Positions 43,990 through 63,603 of a DNA stretch of 64,000 nucleotides are shown here, piece after piece. The position numbers and the translations under genes were made by a program. Origin of the DNA: Anaerolinea sp. (GTDB lineage: Bacteria; Chloroflexota; Anaerolineae; Anaerolineales; Villigracilaceae). Position 1 is the first letter of the stretch. Each line of letters begins with the position of its first letter. The stretch spans positions 62,001 to 126,000 of the forward strand of contig DYID01000002.1 in the NCBI GenBank assembly GCA_020723805.1. The letters are read 5' to 3'. The notes under the pieces were generated by a model. That model had not been told where the DNA came from, did not search any database, and was given only the letters and a program-made list of their open reading frames with translations.

Positions 43990-44493
43990 TCATTGTTCTT
44001 CCTGTAGAGCAAGTTTGTAGACTTGTTCTACAATCTTCTCCACAGGCTGTGAAATATCCAACGTCAACGCGTTGGACGGCTCTTCGAGCGCATCGAACTG
44101 ACTTTTCAACATTTGGGGCTTCATGTAATGGTCAGTCCGTTTTTCCATGCGCTGCCAGATTAACTCATAACTGCCTTTGAGATAGACGATTTGCACGCCG
44201 TCGTTACCTTCCAGCAGGCGCTGGCGATAACGCTCTTTGAGCGCAGAACACGCCAGCACGCCGCGGCGGTTTGCTTTCAGGGTAGAGGCAATCAACTCGT
44301 GCAGGGAATCCAGCCAGGGGGCGCGGTCTTCGTCCGTGAGCGGGATACCGTTTGCCATTTTGGCGATGTTGGCGGGTGGGTGGAAGTCATCGGCGTCGAA
44401 GAAATCCCAGTCCAACTTTTGCGCCAGCGCTTTGCCGACAGCGGTCTTGCCGCTGCCCGAAACGCCCATGACGATGAAAAAACGCGTGTTCAT
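43990..44493 (-). CDS. gntK: Gluconokinase
   Basis: A 167-residue kinase that phosphorylates gluconate at O6. The start MNTRFFIVMG overlaps the stop of the upstream gene (ATGA). The P-loop GVSGSGKTAVGKAL (about 10-23), DADDFHPPANIAKM (about 35-48), LTDEDRAPWLD (about 53-63), ACSALKERYR and GSYELIWQRM are all typical of GntK. Its product, 6-phosphogluconate, enters the pentose phosphate or Entner-Doudoroff route. It is the last gene of the tatA-SDR-LarA-like operon. Confidence 0.94.
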   Translation of the reverse strand: MNTRFFIVMGVSGSGKTAVGKALAQKLDWDFFDADDFHPPANIAKMANGIPLTDEDRAPWLDSLHELIASTLKANRRGVLACSALKERYRQRLLEGNDGVQIVYLKGSYELIWQRMEKRTDHYMKPQMLKSQFDALEEPSNALTLDISQPVEKIVEQVYKLALQEEQ

Positions 44494-45737
44494 TTGAGCC
44501 TGTATAAAATCTCGCCCGCTTTGGGGACGTAGAGAATGCCTTCCTCTTCGCGGTTTTGCCATTCGGCGATGCCCACTTTGGCGGGGTCGAGATAGCCCAG
44601 GTTGAGGCGGGCGCAGTCTTCGGGCGAAATTTTGCTCGCCAGCGTGACGCGCACGTTTGGCTTTTCGATGCCATTTTCCATTACACCCGAACCGCGCAGG
44701 TGGGTGCTGTGCGCCAGCACGCCCAGCGGAATGTGCTTGAAGCGCTCCCAATCTGCGAGGAAATAATCGAGGATGTGATAGCCGACTTCGTAAATGTACT
44801 TGCCGTGAACGTGACTGACCACGTCGAGATGCGGCGCGTAAATGACCACTTCGCCGCCAACGGCAACAGCAGGTTCGAGTTTGTACATGGCTTTGGCGCC
44901 CGTCCACAGTTCATCGTACATCGGCGGGGCGGCGGAAAGGACGCGCTGGAAGGGCTTATCGCACCAGCGGATGTGACGCTGCGAGGAGAAATCCGCCGCT
45001 TCATTCCACGCCGAAACATGGTCGCCGATAAACAGCCCGCACAACCCGACGCCTTCCACTGTGAGCGCAATCAGCGTGACGGGGGTCTTGAGCCTTTGGG
45101 CGGCGGCGTGAATCATGGCGCGCACGGGCGTGTCTTTGACGCCAATCGTCCCCACCACGCCCGCCAGCGCGCCCAGCCAGTGCGTGGCGTTGATCATCTC
45201 CGCGCCAGAGATGCCGGGGAAGAGGTACTTTGCCCCGCCCGAAAATCCGACCACTTCGTGCGGGAAGGTGGGACCGAGAATGAGAATGTGGTCGTATTCC
45301 AACGCGGCTTTGTTCAGGCGGATGTCCACTCGATTGGGCAAAGACTCATGCCAGCGCGCGCCTGCAATCTGTTTGATTTCATCCTGCTCCATCGTTCCCA
45401 GCGTGACCAGCGCGGCGGGATTATCCCAGGCGTGGTTGAGCAAGCCGACATGCCTGAAGATTGTCGTCCGTTCTTCGGCGCTGATGCCCACCAGCCTGTT
45501 CAGGCTTTCATCAGAGAGCGGCGGATGTGTGCCGAGGGCGACCATGAAATCGAGTTGCTGGGTATCACGCAAAATCTCAACCAGAGTCCGAAACAAAAAC
45601 GGCAAGGGCAGAGAACGAGTATGGTCAGGAATGAGGACAAGGACGCGCTGATTCGTGAATTGACGTTCCAGGGCGCGGGTCAACGTGTTGCGTATTTCGT
45701 ATTGCGTAAGAAGAGAGTGGGATGTGAGGGAAATCAT
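44490..45737 (-). CDS. LarA-type nickel-dependent racemase/epimerase homologue
   Basis: A 415-residue protein of the lactate racemase superfamily. IPDHTRSLPLP (about 36-46) matches the DxTRP loop, ALGTHPPLSDESL (about 68-80) the GTHxP loop, and SGGAKYLFPGISG (about 170-182) holds the lysine that binds the nickel-pincer cofactor. The short N-terminus (LTQYEIRNTLTR) resembles translated ACGCAATACGAAATACGCAA repeat sequence, so its true start is uncertain. Flanked by a mannonate-type SDR and GntK, it may be a gluconate/mannonate 2-epimerase. Genes for making the cofactor (larB, larC, larE) are not in the window. Confidence 0.85.
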   Translation of the reverse strand: MISLTSHSLLTQYEIRNTLTRALERQFTNQRVLVLIPDHTRSLPLPFLFRTLVEILRDTQQLDFMVALGTHPPLSDESLNRLVGISAEERTTIFRHVGLLNHAWDNPAALVTLGTMEQDEIKQIAGARWHESLPNRVDIRLNKAALEYDHILILGPTFPHEVVGFSGGAKYLFPGISGAEMINATHWLGALAGVVGTIGVKDTPVRAMIHAAAQRLKTPVTLIALTVEGVGLCGLFIGDHVSAWNEAADFSSQRHIRWCDKPFQRVLSAAPPMYDELWTGAKAMYKLEPAVAVGGEVVIYAPHLDVVSHVHGKYIYEVGYHILDYFLADWERFKHIPLGVLAHSTHLRGSGVMENGIEKPNVRVTLASKISPEDCARLNLGYLDPAKVGIAEWQNREEEGILYVPKAGEILYRLK

Positions 45738-45805
45738 AGGTTATGCATGTGCGTAATGGGTGATTAGAGATTAGAGATTCTCCAATTACCAATTACCAGT
45801 TACCA

Positions 45806-46624
45806 TCACACCCCGCTAAACGCCGAAAACCCGCCGTCAATCGGAATCACCACGCCCGTCACGAAAGAGGCGGCAGGGGAGAGCAGCCACATCGTCGCGC
45901 CGAGCAGGTCATCGGGAGTCCCGAAGCGGTTCATGGGGGTGTGAGCCAGAATGGATTTGCCGCGCTCCGTCAGTTCGCCGGTGTCCTTATCGGTGAGCAG
46001 GAAGCGGTTCTGCTCCGTCAGGAAAAAGCCCGGCGCAATGGCGTTGACGCGAATGTTCGCCGAGTATTCCTGCGCCATGTGGACGGCGAGCCACTGCGTG
46101 AAGTTGCTCACGCCTGCCTTCGCGGCGGAATAGGCTGGGATGCGCGTCAGGGGGCGGAAGGCGTTCATCGAAGAGATGTTGAGGATGACGCCGCTTTTCT
46201 GCTGCGTCATGATTTTGCCGAAAACCTGCGAGGGCAGAATCGTCCCCATCAGGTTCAGGTCGAAGACCCAGCGCAGGGCGTCAGCGGGCAGGTCGAAGAA
46301 GGATTGCTCCGCGCTGGTGGTGGCTTGGGGTTTGTTGCCGCCCGCGCCGTTGATGAGGATATCCACACGCCCGAAGGTTTGGAGTACCGTTTGCGCGGCG
46401 GTTTCCACGCTGGCTTTGTCCAGCACGTTGCAGGCAAGACCGATTGCCCCGGCGCCCAAATCACGTGCGAGCCTTTCGGCTTTTTGCGGATTGAGGTCGA
46501 GGATGGCAACCTTTGCGCCCGCTTCGACCAGCGCCCGGCAGATTGCCGAACCCAACACACCCGCGCCCCCCGTGACGACGGCAGCCCGCCCGCGAAAATC
46601 GTACCAATCAGCAGGGGAGGGCAT
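45806..46624 (-). CDS. SDR-family oxidoreductase, D-mannonate (fructuronate reductase) type
   Basis: A 272-residue short-chain dehydrogenase. The cofactor loop is TGGAGVLGSAI (about 18-28), then NGAGGNKPQATT (about 90-101), catalytic Ser in NISSMNAF and YSAAK (Tyr-x-x-x-Lys near 166-170). The GGNxPxATT segment and PIDGGFSAFSGV end are typical of the SDR-type D-mannonate oxidoreductases found beside uronate genes. It probably reduces fructuronate to mannonate. Other sugar-acid reactions remain possible. tatA starts the operon five bases upstream. Confidence 0.85.
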   Translation of the reverse strand: MPSPADWYDFRGRAAVVTGGAGVLGSAICRALVEAGAKVAILDLNPQKAERLARDLGAGAIGLACNVLDKASVETAAQTVLQTFGRVDILINGAGGNKPQATTSAEQSFFDLPADALRWVFDLNLMGTILPSQVFGKIMTQQKSGVILNISSMNAFRPLTRIPAYSAAKAGVSNFTQWLAVHMAQEYSANIRVNAIAPGFFLTEQNRFLLTDKDTGELTERGKSILAHTPMNRFGTPDDLLGATMWLLSPAASFVTGVVIPIDGGFSAFSGV

Positions 46625-46629
46625 GATGG

Positions 46630-46797
46630 CTAACTCTTGTCAGTCTCTTCGTCCACGCCGCTGTCTTTGACGGCTTCGCGGAAGTTGCGGATGCCTGCGC
46701 CGATTTCAGCGGCGATCTTTCCAATCCGTCCTGCCCCAAAAAGCAGGATGACGATAACGAGCAGGATGACAAGTTCTGTGGGACCGAGTCGAAACAT
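46630..46797 (-). CDS. tatA: Twin-arginine translocase TatA/TatE-type subunit
   Basis: A 55-residue protein: short N-terminus, one hydrophobic helix (about 8-20), the FGAGRIGKIAAEIG hinge and amphipathic helix, then an acidic tail. AGGAG lies before ATG 46797. It heads the uronate operon on the minus strand, an unusual place. Tat substrates in this window include the sugar-binding lipoprotein, the molybdoenzyme and the Rieske protein. tatC was not seen. Confidence 0.9.
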   Translation of the reverse strand: MFRLGPTELVILLVIVILLFGAGRIGKIAAEIGAGIRNFREAVKDSGVDEETDKS

Positions 46798-46947: not shown

Positions 46948-46975
46948 AGTAAACTTGCAAAAAAGGCATAACGAC

Positions 46976-48007
46976 ATGGCGAAGCGTCCCAATCGAGCCA
47001 CCATCAGTGATGTTGCCCAGGCAGCGGGGGTTTCCATTTCGTCTGTTTCCAACGCCATCAACGGCAAGACTGCCGCCATGACCGAAGAAACCCTGCAGCG
47101 CATTCAAGCCGCCATGCGGGAGTTGGATTACCGTCCCAGCAGTGTGGCGCGTGGATTAGCCATGCAGCGCACTGCCACGCTTGGGCTGGTCGTAACCGAA
47201 ATCGAGACGCCGCTTTTCCTGCAGGCTGTCACCCCCATCGAGCGCGAGGCGCGTCAGGCGGGTTACAGCCTGCTTTTGGTCAATGCCCGCAACGAAGAAG
47301 ATGAACGCGAAGCGGTCAACCTGCTGCTCGAAAAACAAGTGGACGGGATGATGGTCATTTCCACGTCCGACCCGCGCCAAAACGACCATTTGCATAAAGT
47401 TCAGGCAGAAGGGACGCCCGTCGCGCTCATCAACCGCGCCGATGTATCTCCCGAATTCGATCAGATCAATTGGGACAATATGACTGGCGTGAAAGACTTG
47501 GTGAGACACTTCGCAGGTCTGGGTCATCGCCGCATCGCCATTTTGGTGGGACCGGTCAACCGCCGCAGTACGCAGGAACGTTTGCAGGGATACCGCGCCG
47601 GCTTGGAAGCCAGTTTGCTTCCTTTTGATGAAGATCTAGTGCGCCCTGGCGATTACACCGCTACTCCCGAAGACTGGAAAAACTCCATCGAAGAACTTTT
47701 GGCACTGGCTTCCCCTCCCACCGCCATCATTGCATCCGATGATATTGTGGCGGCGGTGGTGATTCGCGCGCTTCAAGAGATGGGGAAATCCATCCCCGGC
47801 GATGTTGCCGTGGCGGGCATTGACGACCAGCCGTTCTCGCAATATCTGGGGCTGACCACCATGCAGCTGCCCGTCGCCGAAGCGGGCAGGCAGGCAATCA
47901 ATCTGCTGCTCGAGAGAATCCATCATCCAGAAAAGCAAGCGAAACACATTCTTCTTCCCTGTCCACTGGTGATACGCGATACCTGTGGGGGAAACAAGGC
48001 AGGCTAA
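46976..48007 (+). CDS. LacI-family transcriptional repressor of the glycan locus
   Basis: A 343-residue regulator starting MAKRPNRATISDVAQAAGVS, with the HTH at about 8-30 (TISDVAQAAGVSISSVSNAIN) and hinge helix RPSSVARGLA. The periplasmic-binding-protein-like sugar domain covers about 65-335, including ASDDIVAAVVIRALQEMG. The double operator in its own promoter shows self-control. It begins the run nagB-nagA-GH4-... and probably responds to an amino sugar phosphate or uronate. Confidence 0.94.
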   Translation: MAKRPNRATISDVAQAAGVSISSVSNAINGKTAAMTEETLQRIQAAMRELDYRPSSVARGLAMQRTATLGLVVTEIETPLFLQAVTPIEREARQAGYSLLLVNARNEEDEREAVNLLLEKQVDGMMVISTSDPRQNDHLHKVQAEGTPVALINRADVSPEFDQINWDNMTGVKDLVRHFAGLGHRRIAILVGPVNRRSTQERLQGYRAGLEASLLPFDEDLVRPGDYTATPEDWKNSIEELLALASPPTAIIASDDIVAAVVIRALQEMGKSIPGDVAVAGIDDQPFSQYLGLTTMQLPVAEAGRQAINLLLERIHHPEKQAKHILLPCPLVIRDTCGGNKAG

Positions 48008-48009
48008 CC

Positions 48010-48780
48010 ATGACCGTTTTGCAGACGCTCGTGTTCGATGAACTTTCCGTTGAAGTGTATCCCGACAGCCGCGCCATGGGATACGCCGCCGCGCAGGTCG
48101 CCGCACAAATCATCCGCGAGGCAGTTGCGGCGCGCGGCATTGCCAATATCATCCTCGCTACGGGAAATTCGCAGTTGGAATTTCTCAAAGCCCTGCGCGC
48201 TCTTCCCGATATTCCCTGGCAGGCGGTCAACGCCTTTCACATGGACGAGTACGTTCATCTGCCGCCCGGACATCCCGCCGGTTTTCCACTCACCCTGCGC
48301 CGCAACATCATTGACCATGTGCAGATTGGCAACTTCTTCCCCGTCCCAGGGCTGGCTTCGGACCTCGATGAAGCCTGCCGCGGCTACGAGGCGCTTCTGC
48401 GTGCTCATCCGGCAGACCTGTGCTGTTTGGGCATTGGCGAAAACGGACATCTTGCCTTCAATGAGCCTTTCGACGCCGATTTCCAAGACCCGCGCTGGGT
48501 AAAAGTCATCAGCCTCACCGAAACCAGCCGCCGCCAGCAGGTGGGAGAAGGTCACTTTGCCAGCGTGGAAGAAACACCCACGCACGCCATTACGCTCACC
48601 ATTCCCGCGCTTTTAGCCGCCAGGCGCATCCTTGCCATCGCCCCCGAAACACGCAAAGCGGACATCGTCTATCGTACCCTGCACGATGAAATTGGCACGG
48701 CATGTCCCGCTACTGTTTTACGGAAGACCGCGCACGCCCGCCTCTTTTTGGATGCCGACTCTGCGGCAAAAATTCTGTAG
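48010..48780 (+). CDS. nagB: Glucosamine-6-phosphate deaminase
   Basis: A 256-residue enzyme turning glucosamine-6-phosphate into fructose-6-phosphate and ammonia. AFHMDEYVHL (75-84) holds the catalytic Asp/Glu pair and GIGENGHLAFNEP (141-153) the active-site His loop, both hallmark NagB motifs. It starts two bases after lacI-family stop. nagA follows seven bases later. Length matches short NagB forms without the allosteric C-terminal extension. Confidence 0.95.
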   Translation: MTVLQTLVFDELSVEVYPDSRAMGYAAAQVAAQIIREAVAARGIANIILATGNSQLEFLKALRALPDIPWQAVNAFHMDEYVHLPPGHPAGFPLTLRRNIIDHVQIGNFFPVPGLASDLDEACRGYEALLRAHPADLCCLGIGENGHLAFNEPFDADFQDPRWVKVISLTETSRRQQVGEGHFASVEETPTHAITLTIPALLAARRILAIAPETRKADIVYRTLHDEIGTACPATVLRKTAHARLFLDADSAAKIL

Positions 48781-48787
48781 CCAAAAT

Positions 48788-49945
48788 ATGTCCACCCTGC
48801 AAATTCTCGGCGCGACTCTGCTGACCCCCGAAGCGGTTCTGCCGGACCATTCTCTTCTCATCGAGAACGGACGGATTGCTTCGATTTCCAGCACGCCCCT
48901 CGAAAGCGATGCGCCGACCTTGAACGCGCGCGGCTTTACCGTCATCCCCGGTCTGATTGACATTCACACCCACGGCGGCAATGGTGCAGACGTGATGGAT
49001 GCCACGCCTGAAGCCATTTACACGATTGCGCGCTTCCTCGCCCGGCACGGCGTAACCTCGTACCTGCCGACCACCATCACCGCCTCGCCCGAAGCCACCC
49101 GCAAGGCGATTGCGAATCTGCGCGGTCTGCCCCAACCTGAAGACGGCGCACAGCACCTCGGCGTTCATCTTGAAGGTCCGTATCTCTGCCATGAACAGCG
49201 CGGCGCGCAGCCCGAAGCGCACCTGCGTAACCCCGACCCCGCCGAGTACACCGATTGGTTTGAAGACGATTTGGTTCGCTTGATTACGCTTGCGCCCGAA
49301 CTCGAAGGCGCAGAAGAACTCATCCGCCAGGCGATTGCCCATGGGGTAGAAATTGCCCTCGGTCACACCGCCGCCGATGAAGCAACTGCGCGTAACGCCA
49401 TCAACCTCGGCGTGCGCCAAGCCACGCACATCTTCAGCGGCATGCCCGCTTTTCATCACCGCCTGCTCAACGTCCTCGCGGTGGCACTGACCGATGACCG
49501 CCTCTACGCCCAAGCGATTGTGGATGGAATTCACATCCACCCCGACGTGGTGCGGATGCTGACCCGCGTCAAAACGCCCCGCCGCCTGATCCTGATTAGC
49601 GACTCGATCCGCGCCGCAGGCTTGGGCGACGGCGAATACGACCTCGGCGGTGAGACAGTGCGCGTGCAAAACGGAATCACCCGCCGCGCCTACGACGGCG
49701 GACTGGCTGGTTCCACGCTGACGCTGGACGCCGCGCTCCGCAACGTGATGAAGTTCTCCAACCTGTCCCTCGCCGAAGCCCTGCCGATGGCAACCAGCGT
49801 CCCTGCCGAAGCGATGGGTTGGAGCGGACGCAAAGGCGTCATCCGCATGGGCGCAGATGCCGACCTCGTTTTCCTCGACGATCAATTCAACGTTTGCCTG
49901 ACGATGGTGAATGGGCGCGTTGTGTACCAAACTCAGGAGTTTTAA
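48788..49945 (+). CDS. nagA: N-acetylglucosamine-6-phosphate deacetylase
   Basis: A 385-residue amidohydrolase-fold enzyme. The metal-binding IDIHTHGGNG (about 57-66), HLEGPYL (metal Glu near 124), GHTAADEAT (His near 191) and the ATHIFSGMPAFHHR segment (about 210-223) are as expected, and ISDSIRAAG holds the catalytic Asp near 270. It removes the acetyl group before NagB acts. Its stop overlaps the next start (TAATG). Confidence 0.95.
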   Translation: MSTLQILGATLLTPEAVLPDHSLLIENGRIASISSTPLESDAPTLNARGFTVIPGLIDIHTHGGNGADVMDATPEAIYTIARFLARHGVTSYLPTTITASPEATRKAIANLRGLPQPEDGAQHLGVHLEGPYLCHEQRGAQPEAHLRNPDPAEYTDWFEDDLVRLITLAPELEGAEELIRQAIAHGVEIALGHTAADEATARNAINLGVRQATHIFSGMPAFHHRLLNVLAVALTDDRLYAQAIVDGIHIHPDVVRMLTRVKTPRRLILISDSIRAAGLGDGEYDLGGETVRVQNGITRRAYDGGLAGSTLTLDAALRNVMKFSNLSLAEALPMATSVPAEAMGWSGRKGVIRMGADADLVFLDDQFNVCLTMVNGRVVYQTQEF

Positions 49946-51243
49946 TGACCAAGATTACGTTCATCGGCGCAGGAAGCGTTGTCTTCACCCGCGAACTATT
50001 GGGCGCCATTTACGCCTACCCCGAACTGCGAAACGCCAACATTGCCCTGCACGATATTGACCCGCGCCGACTCGACGCCGCCGAGCGCATGGCACGCCTG
50101 CTCTCGAAAGCCGCAAACGGGACCGGAGAAATCACCGCCACCGCAGATTTGGGGCAAGCGCTCGACGGGGCGGATTATGTCATTAACACAGTGGCAGTTG
50201 GCGGGTTGGAAGCGACGCGCAAAGACAACGAGATTCCAGCCAAGTACGGCATCCATCAAGTCATCGGCGACACGCTCGGCATTGGCGGAATCTCCCGCGC
50301 CGCGCGGACGATTCCCGTGGCGGTCGGCTTTGCGCGCGAGATGGAAAAGCGCTGCCCCGATGCGCTCCTGCTCAACTACAGCAACCCGATGAGCATGGTG
50401 ACGTGGGGCGTGTATGCCGCGACCAAAATCAAAGTGGTCGGCTTGTGCCACAGCATGTATTGGACGACCAAACAACTGACCGAATACATCGGCGCGAATT
50501 TCGATGAAATCACCTTCGACGGCGCGGGCATCAATCATCAAGCCTGGCTGCTGCGCTTCGAGCGCAACGGACAGGACGCCTACCCCGCCCTGCGCGCCGC
50601 CATGCAAGACCCCAAAATTTGGAAGCAGGACACCGTGCGTTTCGAGATGTTCAAGCGCCTGGGATATTTCGTCACCGAGTCGTCCCTGCACAATGCCGAG
50701 TACAGCGCCTACTTTTTGAAGTCGCCCGAACTCATCGAAAAATTCCAGTCGCCTGTCGGTTTTTACGTGCGCCTGTCGGAAGAACATGCCTCGCACTTCG
50801 ACGAGATGTACGAAAGCCTGAAGCGCGGCGACCCGCTGACCCCCAAACCCAGCCCCGAATACGCCCCGCAGATTATCCATGCCATCGAAACGGATACCCC
50901 GCTCAAGATTTACGGCAACGTCCGCAACGACCATCTTATTGACAACCTGCCCGCTGGCTGCTGCGTGGAAGTGCCGACCCTGATTGACAAAACAGGTTTG
51001 CATCCCATTCACGTCGGTGAACTGCCGCCGCATTTGGCAGCCATCAACCGCATCAGCGTCAACGTGCAGGAACTCACCGTCCGCGCCGTGTTGGAAGGCA
51101 AACGCGACTATCTCTACCACGCCGCCATGCTCGACCCGCTGGTAATGGCGACCCTCGACCTCGACCAGGTCTGGGCGCTGGTGGATGAACTGCTGGAAGC
51201 GCATCAACCCTACCTGCCCGCCAATCTCCTTGCCGCTCACTGA
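49945..51243 (+). CDS. Glycoside hydrolase family 4 enzyme (alpha-galactosidase/glucuronidase type), first copy
   Basis: A 432-residue NAD- and Mn-dependent glycosidase. GAGSVVFT (8-15) binds NAD, the NPM motif (Asn147-Pro148) binds substrate, Cys168-His169 in GLCHS and His198 in GINHQ are metal ligands. GDTLGIGGISRAARTIP resembles the MelA/alpha-glucuronidase branch. The enzyme breaks the glycosidic bond by oxidation-elimination and acts inside the cell. The coupling with nagA and AGGAG before ATG indicate an operon. A tandem repeat of CTGATTACTGATTACTGG follows the stop. Confidence 0.93.
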   Translation: MTKITFIGAGSVVFTRELLGAIYAYPELRNANIALHDIDPRRLDAAERMARLLSKAANGTGEITATADLGQALDGADYVINTVAVGGLEATRKDNEIPAKYGIHQVIGDTLGIGGISRAARTIPVAVGFAREMEKRCPDALLLNYSNPMSMVTWGVYAATKIKVVGLCHSMYWTTKQLTEYIGANFDEITFDGAGINHQAWLLRFERNGQDAYPALRAAMQDPKIWKQDTVRFEMFKRLGYFVTESSLHNAEYSAYFLKSPELIEKFQSPVGFYVRLSEEHASHFDEMYESLKRGDPLTPKPSPEYAPQIIHAIETDTPLKIYGNVRNDHLIDNLPAGCCVEVPTLIDKTGLHPIHVGELPPHLAAINRISVNVQELTVRAVLEGKRDYLYHAAMLDPLVMATLDLDQVWALVDELLEAHQPYLPANLLAAH

Positions 51244-51272: not shown

Positions 51273-51947
51273 ATGTCTAACATCCTCGTCTTCTCCCCTC
51301 ACTTCGATGACGAATCCATCGGCTGCGGCGGCGCGATTGCGCGGCATGTAGCGGAAGGCGGCTACGCGGCAGTCATTTTTATGACGCGCGGCGATACGGG
51401 CAACACCACGCCAGGTAAGGAAATCACGCCTGAAGAGAATGAGAAAATTCGCAAACGCGAAGCAGATGCCGCGCTGAAAATCCTTGGCGTGCAAGCCCGC
51501 GATTATCTTGACCTGCCCGATGGTTTCATGCAATGGTCTCCCGAAACCGTCAAAAAAGCCGCCGCAATGATTCGCAAACACCGTCCCGATGTCATCTACG
51601 CCCCGCACGCCGACGATGCCCATAACGATCACAAAGCCACTTGGAAAATCGTTTCCGACGCCATCCCGCGTGCCGCGTGGAGCGCCTTCCCTGACCTGGG
51701 CGAACCCTGGTATTGCCCCGAAATTCGCGGTTACGAAGTCTGGCAGCCTATTTCGACGCCAAATTTTTACATCAACATCACGGATTACATCGAGACCAAA
51801 TCGCAAGCCATTCTCCAATACTCCAGTCAACTGGCTGACCAAATCTACAACGAAGCCGCGCTTGGCTTGAACCGGTATCGCGGCGCGATGGGCGCAGGCG
51901 TGAAATATGCCGAAGCCTTTATCCGCCAAAAGGTCGAGACGATATGA
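51273..51947 (+). CDS. PIG-L/LmbE-family deacetylase
   Basis: A 224-residue zinc deacetylase. PHFDDE (9-14) and HNDH (about 116-119) are the family's zinc-binding motifs. Members remove acetyl groups from GlcNAc-containing compounds such as GlcNAc-inositol. In this locus it probably deacetylates an amino sugar oligomer or conjugate. The gap upstream holds a short tandem repeat. Confidence 0.92.
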   Translation: MSNILVFSPHFDDESIGCGGAIARHVAEGGYAAVIFMTRGDTGNTTPGKEITPEENEKIRKREADAALKILGVQARDYLDLPDGFMQWSPETVKKAAAMIRKHRPDVIYAPHADDAHNDHKATWKIVSDAIPRAAWSAFPDLGEPWYCPEIRGYEVWQPISTPNFYINITDYIETKSQAILQYSSQLADQIYNEAALGLNRYRGAMGAGVKYAEAFIRQKVETI

Positions 51948-52048
51948 GAAAAAGCCAGAAACACACCCAGGAGGTGACATTCCGCAAATGACATTCGATG
52001 ACTCTACCGATAGTTTCGTATCTCATCCACTCACACAAGGAGAAAGAA

Positions 52049-53599
52049 ATGACTAGCAAGTTATCACGACGCGATTTTCTAAAAGCCCTGGGATTAGGCG
52101 CAGGAGCCGCTACGCTTGCCGCCTGTGCTCCCAAGGCGGTTGAAACGCCTGCTCCGGCTGAACCGACTGCCGTCCCCCCAACCGCTGCCGCTGAAGCAAC
52201 AGCCGAAGCGCCCGCCGCCGCTCAACCGCTCTTTGGCTATGAATTCGCCAAGAACAAGGAACAATGGGCAAAACTGCCCGGCGATCATCAATTCGGCTCG
52301 CTGGTCTCTCAAGAAGACTGGTACAAGATACTCGGCGACGCCCCCAAAGAACCGCTGGAACTGGCTCTCTTCAAGGGCGGCTTCGGCGAGGAATGGGGTA
52401 ACATCTTCGTTCAGTTGATGGAGAGAGAACACCCCGGCATCAAACTCAACCTGACCTTCGACCCTACCATTTGGGACAAAGTCCAGCCCAAACTCATCGC
52501 CGGTGAAGTACCGGAATTCCTGTTCTACGCCATCGGCGCCTGGGGCGGCGACTGGAAGAAGGGTGTTGAAGAACACCTCATCATGCCCGGCGACTTCCTG
52601 CTCGATATCGAAGCATACGGTGCGTGGAAAGGTCAGCGCGTGGGAGACCTGTTCAACACCGGCGTGCTCGCCGAAGCCAACCAGGGACTCACCGACCATC
52701 AGTGGTCCTTCCCGCAGACATCCTTTACCTACGGCATCTTCTACAATGTGGAACTGTTCGAAAAGAACAGCTGGCCCGCTCCCGACACCCTCAACTGGGA
52801 AGACTTCATGAAGTTGCAGGAAGAAATCGCCAAAGTCCTGCCGCCGTGGGTATATGCCGGTTTGTATAATTACGAAGGCTGGCTGACCACTGGCTTGCTC
52901 TACAAAACCGTCGGCGACAAAGCCTGGATGGACTGCCACAACCTCGTCCCCGGCGCGTTCCTGAACGAGGGGCTGATCTGGGCGGCTGAACAGCACCAGC
53001 AAATCATCAAGAATGGCTGGAGCATCCCCGGTTCCGACGCGATGGATCACACCTCCTCCCAGCAGTTGTTCGTGGACGGCAAAGCCGCAATGATCCCCAA
53101 CGGCTCCTGGCTGGCGAGCGAACAGGCTTCCACCACCCCGGCGGGCTTTCGCATGAAGTTCTCCGGCGTTCCCAAGCCCGCAAATGGTCTCGGCGACAAC
53201 AACGCGGTTCAGGGTCAACTTGGCGGCGCGGACATGCAGATCGGCAACTCCATGAACCCGCTCTGGGGTATGGAACTGATGCGCCTGTTCTATTCCCCCG
53301 AAATGGCGGAATTCTGGGGCAGTAAGGTCGGTTCACCGCTCCCGCTCAAAGATGCTGCCTCCGGCAACGTCACCGAATACTCTGCCTCCATCAGCGATGC
53401 GGTCAAGAAAGCCAACGGCAAAATCATCCACATGTACTTCAACAGTTACCCGTTGGTGGATAAGGCATACAGCGAGAACTATGCCGATATGGTTCATGGC
53501 AACATGACTGCAAAGGAATTCTTCGAAGGCGTCGAACGCGCCGCGGAAGAGACCCGCAACGACCCCAACATCAAGAAGACGGAATACAAGACCATCTAG
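52049..53599 (+). CDS. ABC sugar transporter substrate-binding lipoprotein with Tat signal
   Basis: A 516-residue family 1-type sugar-binding protein. Start [15 protein letters not shown] at 52049 with AAGGAGA. The twin arginines (7-8) and the LAAC lipobox (Cys26) give a Tat-exported lipoprotein, followed by a Pro/Ala/Thr linker (30-60). The binding domain runs from about 75 to the end. Two permease genes follow after two hairpins. The sugar is unknown, but the context suggests an oligosaccharide with amino sugar or uronate. Confidence 0.92.
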   Translation: MTSKLSRRDFLKALGLGAGAATLAACAPKAVETPAPAEPTAVPPTAAAEATAEAPAAAQPLFGYEFAKNKEQWAKLPGDHQFGSLVSQEDWYKILGDAPKEPLELALFKGGFGEEWGNIFVQLMEREHPGIKLNLTFDPTIWDKVQPKLIAGEVPEFLFYAIGAWGGDWKKGVEEHLIMPGDFLLDIEAYGAWKGQRVGDLFNTGVLAEANQGLTDHQWSFPQTSFTYGIFYNVELFEKNSWPAPDTLNWEDFMKLQEEIAKVLPPWVYAGLYNYEGWLTTGLLYKTVGDKAWMDCHNLVPGAFLNEGLIWAAEQHQQIIKNGWSIPGSDAMDHTSSQQLFVDGKAAMIPNGSWLASEQASTTPAGFRMKFSGVPKPANGLGDNNAVQGQLGGADMQIGNSMNPLWGMELMRLFYSPEMAEFWGSKVGSPLPLKDAASGNVTEYSASISDAVKKANGKIIHMYFNSYPLVDKAYSENYADMVHGNMTAKEFFEGVERAAEETRNDPNIKKTEYKTI

Positions 53600-53612
53600 G
53601 TTTTACGTCTGC

Positions 53613-53645
53613 GGCAGGAAGGGGAGGTGCAATCCCCTCCCTGCC
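53613..53645 (+). terminator. Hairpin after the sugar-binding protein gene (first)
   Basis: GGCAGG-AAGGGGAGG pairs with CCCCTCC-CTGCC around a 6-base loop. It has no T tail, so it may protect the upstream message from decay rather than stop transcription. Confidence 0.6.
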
Positions 53646-53670
53646 TGAATGGATGGAGCCGAACCCAAAG

Positions 53671-53709
53671 AAAGCCCCGCGGGTAGGAATTGCAGACTTG
53701 CGGGGCTTT
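53671..53709 (+). terminator. Hairpin after the sugar-binding protein gene (second)
   Basis: A perfect 10-bp stem, AAAGCCCCGC with GCGGGGCTTT, spans 19 loop bases and ends in TTTCCC. Together with the first hairpin it lies between the binding protein and permease genes, a common way to make more binding protein than permease. Confidence 0.65.
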
Positions 53710-53760
53710 CCCGCCCAACCCATCCAAGCAAATTGTACCTTCATTGCGCAGGAGATGAAC

Positions 53761-54678
53761 ATGAATAAGCGCGAACAAAGGATGTTGATTCTTACCTTCC
53801 TGTTGCCCGGCCTCGTCCTGTACACCGTCTTCAACGTTTACCCATCCCTGCGCGGCATTCTCATCAGTTTTTACGACTGGTCCGGGCTTTCGGGCAATAT
53901 GACCTTTGTCGGCATGAAAAACTTCGCCACGCTCTGGCGCGAATTTACCGACCCGCACGACTTCTACAACATTCGCCTCTACCTTGCCCATAACCTGTTC
54001 TTGATATTCTTTGGCTTTGTCACCACCTTTTTGGGACTTGTCGCCGCCGCCATCATCAACGAAAAGCCTTGGGGGTATCAACTTTTCCGCATTACCTTCT
54101 TCTTCCCCAACGTGCTGGCAATTCCTGCCACCGCCATGTTGTGGAGTCTGGTACTCAACCCAGCCTTTGGTTTGGTCAACAATGTCCTGCGCTCCATTGG
54201 GCTGGAGCAGTTTGCCCTGCCCTGGTTGAGTTTGCAATATCAATGGCCCCTCTTCAAAATCGGCTTGTACTCCGTCGGCTTCATCGTCATCTGGGGCGGA
54301 ATCGGCTGGTTCATGCTTCTCTTCCTCGCCGCCATCCAAAACATCCCGCATGAACTCGTCGAAGCCGCCGTGCTGGACGGCGCGACAAAGGTGCAGGTCT
54401 TCTTCAAAATCACCATCCCGCTCATCTGGGAAACCATCCGCACGGTGATGGTCTATAACATCATTGGCGCGTTGAGCGGATTCGCTCTGAACTATGTGCT
54501 GTTCGAGCGCATTTCTCAAAAACACGCCGACCTCATCATGAATTATTTCTACTGGCAATCCTTCAAGGCGCATAATTGGGGCTACGCCGCTGCCATTGTC
54601 GTGGTCATCTTTGTGGTGACGATGATTTTTACCCTCGTCTCCTATAAAGCCCTCTACCGCGAAAACCTGCAATATTAA
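53761..54678 (+). CDS. ABC sugar transporter permease, MalF type
   Basis: A 305-residue permease with six membrane helices. The cytoplasmic EAA loop reads HELVEAAVLDGATKVQVFFKITIPL (about 198-222), as in the MalF group. ATG 53761 is preferred because GGAG lies nine bases upstream. No ATPase gene is nearby, so the pair probably shares an MsmX/MalK-like ATPase encoded elsewhere. The other permease follows 13 bases later. Confidence 0.93.
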   Translation: MNKREQRMLILTFLLPGLVLYTVFNVYPSLRGILISFYDWSGLSGNMTFVGMKNFATLWREFTDPHDFYNIRLYLAHNLFLIFFGFVTTFLGLVAAAIINEKPWGYQLFRITFFFPNVLAIPATAMLWSLVLNPAFGLVNNVLRSIGLEQFALPWLSLQYQWPLFKIGLYSVGFIVIWGGIGWFMLLFLAAIQNIPHELVEAAVLDGATKVQVFFKITIPLIWETIRTVMVYNIIGALSGFALNYVLFERISQKHADLIMNYFYWQSFKAHNWGYAAAIVVVIFVVTMIFTLVSYKALYRENLQY

Positions 54679-54691
54679 CTGGAGCAAACAA

Positions 54692-55567
54692 ATGCCCAAA
54701 CGTTCTCCTCTTTACTCAGTGCAGAAAGGCGCGGAACGCCTCGCCGCTCAAATGAGTTGGTTTGCCGCCCAACTCATGCTGTGGGTCTTCATGGGCATGG
54801 TGGTCTTCCCCATGTTGTGGACGATTTTCGCCTCCTTCAAAACCAGCCCCGAAATTTTCAACGACCCCTGGGGCATCCCCGACGTTTTTCAATTCCAAAA
54901 CTACGTCACCGCCTGGACGAAGATGAACGCGGGGACATACATTCTCAACAGCCTCATCGTCAGCGCGGGCAGTCTCCTGCTCATCATGGGCTTGGGCAGT
55001 ATGATTGCCTACGTCCTGGCGCGCTACGACTTTCGCGGCAACCGCTTTTTCTTTTTCTTCTTCGTCAGCGGCATGATGATTCCCGGCTACCTCGCCTTCA
55101 TTCCCGCCTGGTTCCTGCACCGCTCGCTCGGCTTGCTCGATACCTACTGGTCGCTCATCATCCAATACACCGCCTTCAACCTGCCCTTCACTGTCTTCAT
55201 GCTCCAATCCTTCTTCAAGACCCTGCCGAAGGAACTCGAAGAAGCCGCTGTCGTGGATGGCGCTTCGCTCTTTACTGTCTTCTGGAAAATCATGCTGCCC
55301 CTCTCCAAAAGCGGACTGCTCACTGTCTCGGTCTTTAACTTCCTCGGCGTGTGGAACGAATTCACCTGGGTGCTCATCACCATTTCGGATGAAAAACTCA
55401 AGACCCTGCCGCTTGGCGCGGTCAACATCATGCAGCAAGCCAAATACGCCACCGACTGGGGCGCGATGTTCGCCGGCTTCGTCATCATCCTCATCCCCAC
55501 CTTTGCCGTGTACATCCTCTTCCAAAGCAAACTCACCGAAGGCATTACCGTTGGAGCGCTGAAGTAG
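54692..55567 (+). CDS. ABC sugar transporter permease, MalG type
   Basis: A 291-residue permease with six helices and the EAA loop KELEEAAVVDGASLFTVFWKIMLPL (about 180-204). It carries the conserved MalG end SKLTEGITVGALK. It works with the preceding permease and the Tat-lipoprotein binding protein. The esterase gene starts two bases after its stop. Confidence 0.94.
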   Translation: MPKRSPLYSVQKGAERLAAQMSWFAAQLMLWVFMGMVVFPMLWTIFASFKTSPEIFNDPWGIPDVFQFQNYVTAWTKMNAGTYILNSLIVSAGSLLLIMGLGSMIAYVLARYDFRGNRFFFFFFVSGMMIPGYLAFIPAWFLHRSLGLLDTYWSLIIQYTAFNLPFTVFMLQSFFKTLPKELEEAAVVDGASLFTVFWKIMLPLSKSGLLTVSVFNFLGVWNEFTWVLITISDEKLKTLPLGAVNIMQQAKYATDWGAMFAGFVIILIPTFAVYILFQSKLTEGITVGALK

Positions 55568-56592: not shown

Positions 56593-56633
56593 CCAATTAC
56601 CAATCACCAATTACCAATCTCCAGGAGTTTCCC

Positions 56634-57935
56634 ATGACCAAAATCGTCCTCATCGGCGCCGGCAGTTACGCCTTTGGCACCGCCACCTTCCGTGACCTGA
56701 TGGCTTGGCGCGAACAATTGCGCGGCAGCACCATCACGCTGGTAGATGTCAATCAGGAATACCTGACCCTGATGACGAACTTCTTCCACAAACTCAACGA
56801 GATGACGGGCAATCCCTACATCATCGAATCCACCACCGACCGCACTCAAGCCCTGCCCGGTGCGGACTTCGTCTTCATCTCCATCGCCGTCAACCGCAAC
56901 GAACGCTGGAAACTGGACTGGAACGTCCCCTTCAAGTACGGCGTCAAGCACGTGCTGGGGGAAAACGGCGGTCCGGGCGGCTTGTTCCACGCCATGCGGA
57001 ATATCCCCATCGTGCTGGACATCGTCCACGATGTGGAAAAACTCGCCCCCAATGCCTTCGTCATCAACTTCACCAACCCCGAAGGGCGCATCTGCCAGGC
57101 AATCAACCGTTACAGCAAGGTGAAATTCGTCGGCTTGTGTCACGGCATCGACTCCCTGCGCCGTGTGGCGGGCTATGCCCTCGACCTGCCTCCCGAAAAA
57201 ATTGACGTGAAAGCGGGCGGACTCAACCACTTCAGTTGGGTGCGCGACCTGCGCCACATGGACACGGGCGAAGACCTCTACCCCGCCTTCCGCAAAGCCG
57301 TGCATGAGCGCCAGGCATACATCGAAGAACAAATGCACCACACCATGAAGTTGAGCGTGTACCTGATGGACACCTTCGGGCTGTACCCCCTGCCCTCCGA
57401 CAACCACGTGGGCGAATACATCTCCTACGCCTGGGAACTGGCGGGCATGGAAGGGCATCCCTTCGACCTGGTGGACCGCGAATCGGATGAGTTCCGCGCC
57501 GACATCCGCTTGTGGACGAGCGGCGAAAAGCCCATGCCCGAATGGATGTTCGAGCCTTCGGGCGAGCGCGCCGTTGCCATCGTGGACGGCATCCTGCACA
57601 ACACGCACCAGTACGAAATCTCGGTCAATATCCCCAACAAGGGCTACATCCCCAACCTGCCGGATGACGCCATTGTCGAAGTCCCCGCCGTGATTGACGC
57701 CACAGGCGTTCACGGCGTCAGCCTCGACCCGCTCCCCGAGCCGATTGCCGCCATGTGCCGCACGCAAATCAACATCATTGACCGCGTTGTCGAAGCGGGC
57801 GTTCACGGCGACAAACAAGCCGCCCTGCAAGCCCTGCTGCTCGACCCCGTCATCTCCTCCGTCAGCCAGGCGCAAGGCATCCTCGATGAACTCCTCGAAG
57901 CCCACAAAGACTTCCTGCCGCAGTTCAAGAAATAA
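56634..57935 (+). CDS. Glycoside hydrolase family 4 enzyme, second copy
   Basis: A 433-residue GH4 enzyme with GAGSYAFG (8-15), NPE (148-150), Cys169-His170 in GLCHG and His199 in GLNHFSW. It differs clearly from the first GH4 copy, with GENGGPGGLFHAMRNIP in place of GDTLGIGGISRAARTIP, so a different sugar or linkage is likely. AGGAG lies directly after an ATTACCA array and before the ATG. The next gene starts after a long repeat. Confidence 0.93.
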   Translation: MTKIVLIGAGSYAFGTATFRDLMAWREQLRGSTITLVDVNQEYLTLMTNFFHKLNEMTGNPYIIESTTDRTQALPGADFVFISIAVNRNERWKLDWNVPFKYGVKHVLGENGGPGGLFHAMRNIPIVLDIVHDVEKLAPNAFVINFTNPEGRICQAINRYSKVKFVGLCHGIDSLRRVAGYALDLPPEKIDVKAGGLNHFSWVRDLRHMDTGEDLYPAFRKAVHERQAYIEEQMHHTMKLSVYLMDTFGLYPLPSDNHVGEYISYAWELAGMEGHPFDLVDRESDEFRADIRLWTSGEKPMPEWMFEPSGERAVAIVDGILHNTHQYEISVNIPNKGYIPNLPDDAIVEVPAVIDATGVHGVSLDPLPEPIAAMCRTQINIIDRVVEAGVHGDKQAALQALLLDPVISSVSQAQGILDELLEAHKDFLPQFKK

Positions 57936-62265: not shown

Positions 62266-62394
62266 CCAACCATCAATTACCAATTACCAATCACCAATTA
62301 CCAATCACCAATTACCAACCACCAATTACCAATCTCCAACCACTGCTTACCACTCACTGATAACTGCCCACTGATGACTGATAACTGCTCACTG
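62266..62394. repeat. ATTACCA and ACTGATAACTG arrays
   Basis: A 129-base gap is made almost wholly of the two repeat families, ending in CACTGATGCCC that gives the ATG of the next gene. Confidence 0.9.
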
Positions 62395-63603
62395 ATGCCC
62401 TCTCCCCTCTCCCTCTCCCCCTCCTTCGGCTTCGGCGACCGCCTCGGTCTTGCCACGCCGGGTCACATCGCCGCCCTGCGCGCCGCAATTACCACTTACC
62501 AATTACCACTTACCAATCACCAATTACCCCTCTCCCCCATCTTCGCCCAGCAATCCGTCCGCGAGAACAGCCGCACGGGACGCACCCCCCAGCAGGTGAT
62601 GGATGACGCCAGACGCGCCGTCGAAGCCGCAAAATGGGATTTGCCCTGGGGCGCGGACGCCGACCACCTGAAAAGCGTGGACGACCTGCCGTCCTTCGTC
62701 GCCGCAGGCTACACCTTCTTCACCGTTGACCCTGGCGCACATGTGGACAACGCCGCCGACGGCGCCCCGCTGCCTGTCTTGCAGGAAAAGGCGCGGGGCG
62801 TGGACTGGGACGAACTCTCAGCGTTGTATCTTTCTGGGACGGGCGAACAGGCTTGGGGGCGGTTCGATGCGGAGACTCTCCTGCGGGCGGTGGTCAAATA
62901 TGGGCGGGCAATCCGTCACAGCGTGGAGATGTTCCGTCATCTTTCCGAAATGAAAGCGGATTTCGATTTTGAAATCTCCGTGGACGAAACCGACTCGCCC
63001 ACCACCCCGCTCGAACACTACTTCATCGCCAGCGAACTGACGCGGGCGGGCGTGCGCTTCACCAGCCTTGCTCCGCGCTTCATCGGGCGCTGGGAAAAGG
63101 GCGTGGATTACCTCGGCGATTTGTCCGCGCTGGATGCGGAAATGCAAAAACACGCCGCCGTAGTGTGTCACTTTGGCGCGTACAAACTCAGCCTGCATTC
63201 GGGTTCGGATAAATTCAGCGTTTACCCCCTGCTGGCGAAGCATTTCGCGGGGCGCTTTCACGTCAAAACGGCGGGGACGAGTTACCTCGAAGCCCTGCGC
63301 GTGCTGGCGGCGCGCGAACCTGACCTGTTCCGCCGCATTTGGGCGCTGGCGCGTGAACGCTACGCCGCCGACCGCGCCACCTACCACGTCTCGGCGGAGT
63401 TGGAAAAAGTGACCGCCGCCGACCTGCCAGCCCTGCTGGATGACTTCCACGCCCGCGAGATTCTCCACGTCACCTTTGGCTCCGTCCTCGCCCGCTTCGG
63501 CGCGGACCTCAAGCCTGCCCTCGTCAAACACACCGACTCCTACGCCCAGGCCCTGCAAACCCACTTCATCAAACATCTGCGGCTGTTGAATGCAGAAGGA
63601 TGA
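62395..63603 (+). CDS. uxaE: Tagaturonate epimerase (UxaE type) with N-terminal loss and repeat insertion
   Basis: A 402-residue protein that matches UxaE, which interconverts D-tagaturonate and D-fructuronate. Recognisable blocks: SFGFGDRLGLATPGHI (about 9-24), PIFAQQSVRENSRTGRT (about 48-64), GADADHLKS, FDFEISVDETDSPTTPLEHY, SLHSGSDKFSVYP and FHVKTAGTSYLEA. An ATTACCA array (62486-62528) adds about 14 residues just before PIFAQQS, and the N-terminal domain of about 80-90 residues found in Thermotoga-type enzymes is absent. The ATG lies in repeat DNA without a Shine-Dalgarno site. Confidence 0.9.
   Translation: MPSPLSLSPSFGFGDRLGLATPGHIAALRAAITTYQLPLTNHQLPLSPIFAQQSVRENSRTGRTPQQVMDDARRAVEAAKWDLPWGADADHLKSVDDLPSFVAAGYTFFTVDPGAHVDNAADGAPLPVLQEKARGVDWDELSALYLSGTGEQAWGRFDAETLLRAVVKYGRAIRHSVEMFRHLSEMKADFDFEISVDETDSPTTPLEHYFIASELTRAGVRFTSLAPRFIGRWEKGVDYLGDLSALDAEMQKHAAVVCHFGAYKLSLHSGSDKFSVYPLLAKHFAGRFHVKTAGTSYLEALRVLAAREPDLFRRIWALARERYAADRATYHVSAELEKVTAADLPALLDDFHAREILHVTFGSVLARFGADLKPALVKHTDSYAQALQTHFIKHLRLLNAEG

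What the first reader, a model, noticed from the sequence alone, without database searches (positions are those of the whole stretch)
43990..46624. Possible uronate route: fructuronate to mannonate to gluconate to 6-phosphogluconate
A mannonate-type SDR, a LarA-type nickel enzyme and gluconokinase are consecutive, and uxaE lies in the divergent half of the locus. LarA relatives with D-gluconate 2-epimerase activity have been reported. If this one turns mannonate into gluconate, uronates would reach the pentose phosphate route without UxuA, KDG kinase or KDPG aldolase. I do not know this as a described pathway in Chloroflexota.
Basis: partly seen in the sequence, partly recalled or inferred. 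Interest (0 to 1): 0.8.

Follow-up and report, generated by a model that had tools for sequence, protein, structure and literature searches.

The report
Nickel sugar-acid epimerase lacking cofactor genes
The three genes most likely turn fructuronate into 6-phosphogluconate by a route already proposed for Thermotoga, but this bacterium and many relatives lack the known genes that make the nickel cofactor the middle enzyme should need, so they may obtain it from elsewhere.

Summary
On the minus strand lie an SDR of the D-mannonate oxidoreductase subfamily, a LarA-superfamily protein whose best match by sequence and predicted fold is Thermotoga maritima GntE2 (4NAR), and a GntK-type gluconokinase that overlaps it by ATGA. 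uxaE is the last gene of the divergent operon inside the window. The proposed chemistry is probably right, but the route is not new: it was proposed for T. maritima, and GntE2 epimerizes D-mannonate in vitro. uxuA and eda were not found in the window's genome; a short NAD-type 6-phosphogluconate dehydrogenase was. Two assumptions fail there: no uronate isomerase (UxaC, KduI) and no larB, larC or larE was found. The second gap is widespread: 52 of 76 distinct gntE-bearing genomes lack LarC. Active-site residues are invariant wherever they could be read, and nine window/lar-minus pairs show low dN/dS; but 4 of the 23 relatives without lar genes have a truncated or frameshifted gntE. Other LarA homologues in these relatives mostly show the same gap. 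Verdict: a Chloroflexota variant of a known route, with an unexplained nickel-pincer cofactor supply as the surprising part. No activity was tested.

The parts
43990..44493 (-). gntK: gluconokinase, GntK/IdnK type (P-loop GVSGSGKT), 167 aa, start overlaps gntE stop (ATGA)
   Evidence: (TIGR01313, 183 bits, cut-off 113.75)
44490..45737 (-). gntE: LarA-superfamily nickel-pincer epimerase, probable D-mannonate/D-gluconate 2-epimerase, 415 aa; D38 R41 H71 H160 E161 V162 K170 H186 W278 K282
45806..46624 (-). uxaD/uxuB-type SDR, probable fructuronate reductase (D-mannonate oxidoreductase)
   Evidence: (NF006132, 377.7 bits, cut-off 281)
46636..46797 (-). tatA-like small ORF between the divergent promoter region and uxaD
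   Evidence: PF02416, 50.5 bits
46892..46948 (.). divergent promoter-like pair (+ TTGACA-16-TATAAT; - TTTACT-17-TATAAT) with two tandem copies of the palindrome TAAAGCGCTTTA at 46924-46935 and 46937-46948, possible LacI-family operator
   Evidence: 2 sites; shuffle mean 0.07
46955..48007 (+). LacI-family regulator
48010..48780 (+). NagB-like protein (glucosamine-6-phosphate deaminase family, below every listed NCBIfam cut-off)
48710..49945 (+). NagA-type N-acetylglucosamine-6-phosphate deacetylase (true start inside the span)
   Evidence: TIGR00221, 315 bits, cut-off 225.65
49939..51243 (+). GH4 glycosidase a
51273..51947 (+). PIG-L (LmbE) de-N-acetylase
51998..55567 (+). probable carbohydrate ABC transporter: solute-binding protein and two permeases (read from the ORFs, no family search run on them)
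56628..57935 (+). GH4 glycosidase b (carries CHG motif, recalled as alpha-glucuronidase type)
62374..63603 (+). uxaE: tagaturonate/fructuronate epimerase, short form without the N-terminal ~70 model positions
   Evidence: (PF16257, 399 bits)

Best explanation
The cassette is a Chloroflexota version of the Thermotoga GntE shunt. UxaE interconverts tagaturonate and fructuronate, the SDR (UxaD type) reduces fructuronate to D-mannonate, the LarA-family GntE inverts C2 of D-mannonate to give D-gluconate by hidden hydride transfer on a nickel-pincer nucleotide (NPN), and GntK makes 6-phosphogluconate, which a short NAD-type 6-phosphogluconate dehydrogenase encoded elsewhere takes into the pentose phosphate route. 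Because uxuA and eda were not found, no UxuA-KdgK-Eda branch is evident. Shown here: gene identities by profile, operon order, conserved residues, predicted fold, presence or absence of partner genes at the sensitivity of the searches. Inferred: substrates, direction, NPN use, regulation by the LacI protein. Not explained: where this organism gets NPN (no larB, larC or larE found) and which enzyme or substrate supplies fructuronate or tagaturonate (no uxaC or kduI found).
For: Nearest solved sequence is 4NAR (197 bits; next LarA 40 bits); AlphaFold model (pLDDT 93.1) matches 4NAR best, TM 0.89, next LarA-type 0.77. D38, R41, H71, H160, K170, H186 and K282 line up with the LarA/GntE2 catalytic and NPN-binding residues named in PMC7583248, and the loop E-V and helix W signature of groups 18-20 is present. 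In the 21 loci clustered (window plus 20 relatives) gnd occurs in 16, uxaE in 12 and uxaC in 11. Own genome: uxuA not found (nor in 148 of 150 genomes searched, own included), eda not found, short 6PGDH over cut-off next to pgl. T. maritima operon and GntE2 assay.
Against: No larB, larC, larE found in the genome, no UxaC or KduI. Identity to GntE2 is only 31%, and the protein falls far below the NCBIfam hexonate-epimerase cut-off (167 vs 500 bits), which is a group-18 model. uxaE is 16 kb away and short. The SDR is closer to other solved SDRs than to T. maritima 1VL8 (that 1VL8 is TM0441/UxaD is recalled). The kinase could act on mannonate first, as found in Lactobacillus suebicus. T. maritima itself did not grow on gluconate, glucuronate or galacturonate as sole source. 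gntE is truncated or frameshifted in 4 of 23 lar-minus relatives.
Confidence: 0.78

Rival explanations
1. The enzyme works with NPN obtained from outside the cell, or made by an unknown route: these organisms are NPN users without the known makers, and NPN behaves like a shared vitamin. (Compatible with the best explanation; it answers the supply question.)
For: LarC not found in 52 of 76 distinct gntE genomes; LarB, LarC and LarE are together over cut-off in 6 of 29 gntE relatives and none is over cut-off in the other 23; 11 of these 23 are at least 96% complete; the Roseithermus sacchariphilus chromosome, titled complete genome, lacks LarC and LarE. At each of 12 positions the residue is identical in 44 of the 45 lar-minus loci, the other being a partial gene without a letter there; dN/dS 0.08-0.18 in the ten of eleven pairs that gave a value. 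Other LarA homologues show the same gap: 37 of 45 LarA-bearing genomes lack LarC. The converse, makers without LarA, is reported for ~15% of genomes in PMC11796402 and may occur in G095, G131, G144.
Against: No NPN transporter is known to me and none could be singled out: the recurrent neighbours c7 and c11 do not track lar absence. Absence is negative evidence, mostly from metagenome bins. G158 holds a LarE fragment at a contig end. 4 of 23 lar-minus relatives have a damaged gntE. All 150 relatives have sub-cut-off LarE-like matches, read here as PP-loop paralogues.
Confidence: 0.38
2. In lar-minus genomes the gene is a relic or has another use: the pathway is non-functional for want of cofactor.
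For: gntE is cut short inside the contig in G006 (also frameshifted), G027 and G094 and frameshifted in G082, all lar-minus; none of the 6 lar-plus relatives shows this. G166 has a larC remnant inside a contig and no LarE over cut-off. I raised this rival from 0.15 to 0.2.
Against: 15 of the 23 lar-minus relatives have a full-length open gntE and 4 more are cut only by contig ends; no stop in the best matching segment of 100 loci; identical active-site residues; low dN/dS in nine pairs of the window gene with lar-minus genomes (synonymous sites near saturation); conserved linkage with uxaD and gnd. The four damaged genes could be assembly faults.
Confidence: 0.2
3. Mannonate is phosphorylated first (mannonate kinase) and 6-phosphomannonate is then epimerized to 6-phosphogluconate; the LarA-like protein, or another enzyme, is the phospho-epimerase.
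For: This order of steps was shown in cell extracts of L. suebicus (PMC6978723).
Against: The genes were not identified in that paper; the nearest characterised protein, GntE2, acts on unphosphorylated mannonate. The overlap of gntE and gntK here does not tell the order of steps.
Confidence: 0.12
4. The physiological feed in genomes without uxaC is not a uronate but inositol-derived tagaturonate, as in the T. maritima inositol route.
For: uxaC was not found in G030, G050 and G061. Beyond gnd and a PfkB gene their gntE operons carry iolG (over cut-off in G030) and an iolM-like gene (174.7 bits, cut-off 450, tested in G030); iolN is over cut-off in G050 and its cluster is also in G030.
Against: The inositol-to-tagaturonate steps are recalled, not read. 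The window's operon carries GH4 glycosidases and amino-sugar genes, which point to a glycan.
Confidence: 0.15

Closest known systems
Thermotoga maritima UxaR-regulated gnd-uxaR-uxaE-uxaD-gntE-gntK genes (PMC3750489; Rodionova et al. 2012, cited there, not held)
   Same: Same functions, same uxaD-gntE-gntK order; relatives of the window also carry uxaC, uxaE and gnd near gntE.
   Different: In the window genome uxaC, uxuA, eda and larBCE were not found; regulator is LacI type rather than UxaR; uxaE is 16 kb away; 6PGDH is the short NAD type. T. maritima also keeps a kdgA-kdgK-uxuB-uxuA operon.
GntE2 / LarAH20 of T. maritima (PDB 4NAR), D-gluconate 2-epimerase (PMC7583248)
   Same: Best sequence and fold match; catalytic and NPN-binding residues, loop E and helix W shared.
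   Different: 31% identity; V instead of S after the loop E, A instead of G before the catalytic Lys; activity untested.
Lactobacillus suebicus galacturonate pathway (PMC6978723)
   Same: Also routes mannonate to 6-phosphogluconate and on to pentose phosphates.
   Different: There mannonate is phosphorylated before epimerization; genes not identified.
LarA lactate racemase and other LarA-superfamily enzymes
   Same: Fold (TM 0.69-0.77 for lactate racemase types) and the NPN and catalytic residues.
   Different: Substrate-loop residues (F-F in LarA, E-V here) and context.

Membership tests
GntE (LarA superfamily D-gluconate 2-epimerase) | LarA two-domain fold, nearest to GntE2 | tested here: met
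   4nar TM 0.89, E 7.7e-39; other LarA-superfamily structures 0.57-0.77
GntE (LarA superfamily D-gluconate 2-epimerase) | Catalytic Asp, two His and Lys (D72, H108, H174, K298 of LarA) | tested here: met
   D38, H71, H160, K282
GntE (LarA superfamily D-gluconate 2-epimerase) | NPN-binding Arg, Lys, His (R75, K184, H200 of LarA; R41, K164, H180 of GntE2) | tested here: met
   R41, K170, H186
GntE (LarA superfamily D-gluconate 2-epimerase) | Group 18-20 signature: loop E then V/S, helix 11 W | tested here: met
   E161, V162, W278
GntE (LarA superfamily D-gluconate 2-epimerase) | A and H at the positions of LarA W358 and T359 | tested here: inconclusive
   A342-H343 do not vary in the loci read, but a sequence alignment places GntE2 N348 at G339; no residue-level structural alignment was made
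GntE (LarA superfamily D-gluconate 2-epimerase) | Epimerase activity on D-mannonate | not testable with these tools
   needs enzyme assay
NCBIfam NF052594 (NPN_18 hexonate epimerase, equivalog) | Score over curated cut-off 500 bits | tested here: not met
   167.4 bits; not filed under this model
Functional NPN system | larB, larC, larE in the genome | tested here: not met
   (best LarE match 33.9 bits, cut-off 150); T. maritima control is over the cut-off for LarC and rings for LarB and LarE, whose lists do not say which controls pass the cut-off
T. maritima-type UxaC-UxaE-UxaD-GntE-GntK-Gnd pathway | UxaC uronate isomerase | tested here: not met
   not found in own genome, found in 15 of 29 gntE genomes
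T. maritima-type UxaC-UxaE-UxaD-GntE-GntK-Gnd pathway | UxaE, fructuronate reductase, GntE, gluconokinase, 6PGDH | tested here: met
   (6PGDH is the short TIGR00872 type); by profile, not by activity
Canonical UxuA-KdgK-Eda route | UxuA | tested here: not met
   0 matches in own genome, 2 of 150 genomes
Canonical UxuA-KdgK-Eda route | Eda | tested here: not met
   0 in own genome, 11 of 29
Canonical UxuA-KdgK-Eda route | KdgK | not tested
   PfkB kinases are too numerous for a family search; an unassigned PfkB gene lies at L134:4848-5762

The most novel reading that the evidence does not exclude
Nickel-pincer nucleotide is a traded cofactor. Many Chloroflexota, some Deinococcota and Roseithermus (Rhodothermota) keep functional NPN enzymes (GntE and other LarA homologues) after losing, or without ever having, larB, larC and larE, and live on NPN made by neighbours, while other organisms make NPN without having a LarA. 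Alternatively they make NPN by an unknown set of enzymes. Either way an unknown NPN transporter or an unknown NPN pathway exists.
Probability: 0.38. Interest if true: 0.85.

Novelty: new variant of a known kind. Interest (0 to 1): 0.57.

Why it matters
It places the GntE shunt in a large, mostly uncultured phylum, in genomes where the usual KDG branch was not found. It also exposes a gap in cofactor biology: nickel-pincer enzymes appear to be maintained by selection in many genomes in which the known cofactor-making genes were not found. If the enzymes are active, NPN is either exchanged between microbes or made by an unknown route; both are directly testable.

Tried and rejected
Rejected: the idea that missing lar genes reflect poor assemblies. 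Taking stated completeness as the chance of finding the cluster, about 1.8 misses would be expected among the 23 lar-minus relatives if all had it, not 23; the Roseithermus chromosome also lacks LarC and LarE (LarB not searched there, and a plasmid outside the record is not excluded). Rejected: a distinct cofactor-free subclade. Lar-plus and lar-minus genes interleave (at least 14 changes on the tree, 6 forced by starred branches, quick method, root not inferred; the label is still more clustered than in 499 of 500 shuffles) and have the same residues. Against this, lar-plus is commoner outside the clade of the window gene: 15 of 19 against 9 of 48 (Fisher p 7e-6, which ignores shared ancestry). 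Rejected: neighbours c7 (no family hit) and c11 (PanS/SBF-like membrane protein) as NPN transporters; c7 in 7 of 43 lar-minus and 1 of 24 lar-plus loci, c11 in 5 of 43 and 1 of 24. The Amidohydro_2 protein after uxaE was considered as a replacement uronate isomerase; it has no solved relative by sequence and matched 1 of 100 gntE loci (G094), so nothing is claimed. Led nowhere: literature searches for NPN users without makers and for this route in Chloroflexi.

Limits: all 12 genome searches are used, so iol genes, kdgK and zwf were not sought in the own genome. In some searches, 50 of the 80 loci were examined. LarB was searched only in the 34 genomes. The Lar_N search is not complete: it rang in T. 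maritima and Methanosarcina but not in the Corynebacterium control, whose species has GntE1 by PMC7583248, and it missed the gntE pieces of G006, G027 and G094; so 'no LarA' in G095, G131 and G144 is weak. The residue check of other LarA homologues fetched 20; two (L149, L150) were read in a wrong frame and dropped, leaving 18, of which 15 are lar-minus and 10 of those keep all seven residues. dN/dS is a simple pairwise estimate with synonymous sites near saturation (dS 0.94-1.95, one pair infinite).

Full report
OBSERVATION. The SDR passes the cut-off of the D-mannonate oxidoreductase subfamily, the kinase that of GntK/IdnK-type gluconokinases, and the middle protein matches Lar_N. A 54-residue TatA-like ORF precedes the SDR. 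The region between this ORF and a divergent LacI-family gene holds a perfect sigma-70-like promoter on the plus strand, a promoter-like site on the minus strand, and two tandem copies of the palindrome TAAAGCGCTTTA (46924-46948) that occur nowhere else in the window even with one mismatch. The scan found 3 promoter-like sites against 1.4 in shuffles, so these are consensus matches only. That the LacI protein controls both directions is an inference.

SURROUNDINGS. The plus-strand operon holds NagB-like and NagA proteins, two GH4 glycosidases, a PIG-L deacetylase, what reads as a sugar ABC transporter (from the ORFs only), a weakly GH42-like protein and, last in the window, uxaE. Beyond the window the same contig goes on with an Amidohydro_2 protein, a SIS-domain protein (below the deaminase cut-offs), a tagatose-bisphosphate aldolase, two PfkB kinases and, further on, a galactokinase. 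I read this as use of a glycan with amino sugar and uronate parts; that is inference. GH4b has a CHG motif and GH4a a CHS motif; that these mark uronidase and galactosidase types is recalled, not tested.

WHAT THE LARA-LIKE PROTEIN IS. Its best match among solved sequences is 4NAR, T. maritima GntE2 (197 bits, next LarA 40 bits). An AlphaFold model (mean pLDDT 93.1, 21 sequences) matches 4NAR at TM 0.89 and 31% identity, other LarA-superfamily structures at 0.77 or less. The residues that PMC7583248 (four sections and passages read) names as catalytic and NPN-binding are present, as are the loop E-V and the W of groups 18-20. It is far below the cut-off of the one hexonate-epimerase model that matched in NCBIfam (167 of 500 bits), so it is not filed under that group. 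In PMC7583248 GntE2 converted D-mannonate to D-gluconate (KM 17 mM, kcat 197 per s); PMC11770544 (passages and two sections) added a eukaryotic GntE.

THE ROUTE IS KNOWN AS A PROPOSAL. PMC3750489 (passages) lists the T. [quoted passage not shown] 2012, which is not held. It also reports that T. maritima did not grow on gluconate, glucuronate, galacturonate or inositol as sole source. PMC7583248 says GntE2 probably lets mannonate enter the pentose phosphate pathway. PMC6978723 (passages) notes that no in vivo proof of that pathway existed then, and shows a variant in Lactobacillus suebicus with phosphorylation before epimerization. A four-term search for mannonate, gluconate, epimerase and Chloroflexi found no paper; one for Chloroflexi, glucuronate, uxuA and Anaerolineae (any three) found 7, none of which names uxuA (listing only). 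The library is not the whole literature.

GENE CONTENT. The window lies in G000, 3.69 Mb, 97.2% complete. Not found in G000: uxuA (2 of 150 genomes have it), eda (11 of 29 gntE genomes), uxaC (15 of 29), kduI (10 of 29). 6PGDH: a short form in G000 that passes the NAD-type model, next to 6-phosphogluconolactonase; 27 of 29 have some 6PGDH. So the lower half of the proposed route is there, the classical branch is not evident, and the enzyme that would feed the route from uronates is missing. In relatives in which uxaC was not found, inositol genes follow in the gntE operon: iolG over cut-off and an iolM-like gene under cut-off (both tested in G030, same clusters in G050 and G061), iolN over cut-off in G050 with its cluster also in G030.

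CONTEXT IN RELATIVES. gntE homologues at E 1e-20 or better occur in 29 of the 150 genomes, own included; 18 of the 29 are among the 105 better genomes. In 21 loci clustered (window plus 20), uxaD occurs in 20, gnd in 16, uxaE in 12 and uxaC in 11 (clusters identified). In 80 loci from genome contigs, within 7 kb of gntE: SDR matching uxaD 49, gnd 29, uxaC 24, gntK 16. These counts are not independent of shared descent, and many contigs are short.

THE COFACTOR GAP. LarC: 11 of 150, not G000. LarE over cut-off: 11 of 150, not G000; all 150 have weaker matches, which I read as PP-loop paralogues. LarB over cut-off: 10 of 34 genomes examined, not G000; nine more have weak matches. Among the 29 gntE genomes, 6 (G050, G090, G104, G117, G126, G139) have all three and 23 have none over cut-off. 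Among 50 genomes reached from 50 of the 80 loci, LarC is in 19 and LarE over cut-off in 17, all within the 19. The 52 include four Deinococcota bins and the Roseithermus sacchariphilus chromosome, whose record is titled complete genome. Exceptions told: G158 has a LarE fragment at a contig end and may be a false lar-minus; G166 is counted lar-plus on a broken LarC remnant without LarE; G196 has LarC pieces on two contigs and no LarE over cut-off.

IS THE ENZYME STILL IN USE? Twelve positions (D38, R41, H71, H160, E161, V162, K170, H186, W278, K282, A342, H343) were read in 100 loci, three of them repeats of the same genome. All are identical to the window protein in 25 of 25 lar-plus loci and, at each position, in 44 of 45 lar-minus loci, the other being a partial gene without a letter there; 30 loci of untested lar status agree where read. 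Pairwise dN/dS of the window gene with eleven others is 0.08 to 0.18 in ten, nine of them lar-minus; the eleventh (G072) is saturated at synonymous sites. The tree of 66 genes needs at least 14 changes of lar status, 6 forced by starred branches (quick method). Against use: among the 23 lar-minus of the 29 genomes, 15 have a full-length open gntE, 4 (G046, G070, G075, G077) are cut by contig ends, and 4 are damaged: G006, G027 and G094 stop matching although the contig goes on, and G082 and G006 are frameshifted. None of the 6 lar-plus relatives is damaged. The numbers are small and assembly faults are possible.

NOT PECULIAR TO GNTE. Lar_N (PF09861) matches 44 of the 150 genomes. Together, and leaving out the weak matches in G116 and G124, 45 have a LarA homologue and 37 of them lack LarC. 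Of the other LarA homologues read in the right frame, 10 of 15 from lar-minus genomes keep all seven catalytic and NPN-binding residues. G095, G131 and G144 have LarC and no LarA match, but the Lar_N search also missed its Corynebacterium control, so this is weak. PMC11796402 (passages) reports makers without LarA in about 15% of genomes; in the passages I read I found no report of users without makers. Searches that named the Lar genes or the cofactor with auxotrophy, metagenome or cross-feeding terms showed none among the papers listed (20 of 53 and 12 of 48 listed; none found).

CONCLUSION. The finding is real and its chemistry is probably right, but the route is a described one. What deserves attention is that a nickel-pincer enzyme appears to be kept by selection in many genomes in which the known cofactor genes were not found. 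Salvage, an unknown pathway or loss of function remain open; I rate a working supply route (salvage or unknown synthesis) at 0.38 because all evidence is presence/absence and sequence.

Noticed in passing
window 46924-46948: Two tandem perfect palindromes TAAAGCGCTTTA overlap the divergent promoter region in front of the LacI gene; shuffle expectation 0.07 sites at up to one mismatch.
   Followed up: partly
window 46636-46797 (-): A tatA-like gene heads the uxaD-gntE-gntK direction; no reason for a Tat component there is evident.
   Followed up: no
window 62374-63603: uxaE lacks about 70 N-terminal model positions and carries an in-frame TTYQLPLTNHQLPL stretch that resembles repeats at the ends of neighbouring ORFs; short uxaE ORFs (389-413 aa) also occur in G016, G030, G053, G063, G071.
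   Followed up: partly
L134, L135 (G000:C11:124000-163000): The plus-strand operon continues with a SIS-domain protein, tagatose-bisphosphate aldolase and PfkB kinases, and a galactokinase lies further on, suggesting galactosamine or galactose use.
   Followed up: partly
L133 and L158 (G006), L028 (G027), L026 (G082), L027 (G094): gntE truncated or frameshifted in four lar-minus genomes; in G006 gntK and gnd beside it are open.
   Followed up: partly
L157 1368-1747 (G166:C22:9367-9746): A larC remnant (about positions 133-256 of the model) in the middle of a contig of a genome without LarE over cut-off but with an open gntE.
   Followed up: partly
G095, G131, G144: LarC present, no LarA homologue matched: possible NPN makers without a known user; the Lar_N search is not complete.
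   Followed up: no
L031, L034 and others, cluster c7: A conserved 160-184 aa protein, without Pfam or NCBIfam match in the one member scanned, sits just after gntE in several loci.
   Followed up: partly
window 57947-60112: A 721 aa ORF between GH4b and the GH42-like gene has no Pfam or NCBIfam match; possibly an unassigned glycosidase.
   Followed up: no
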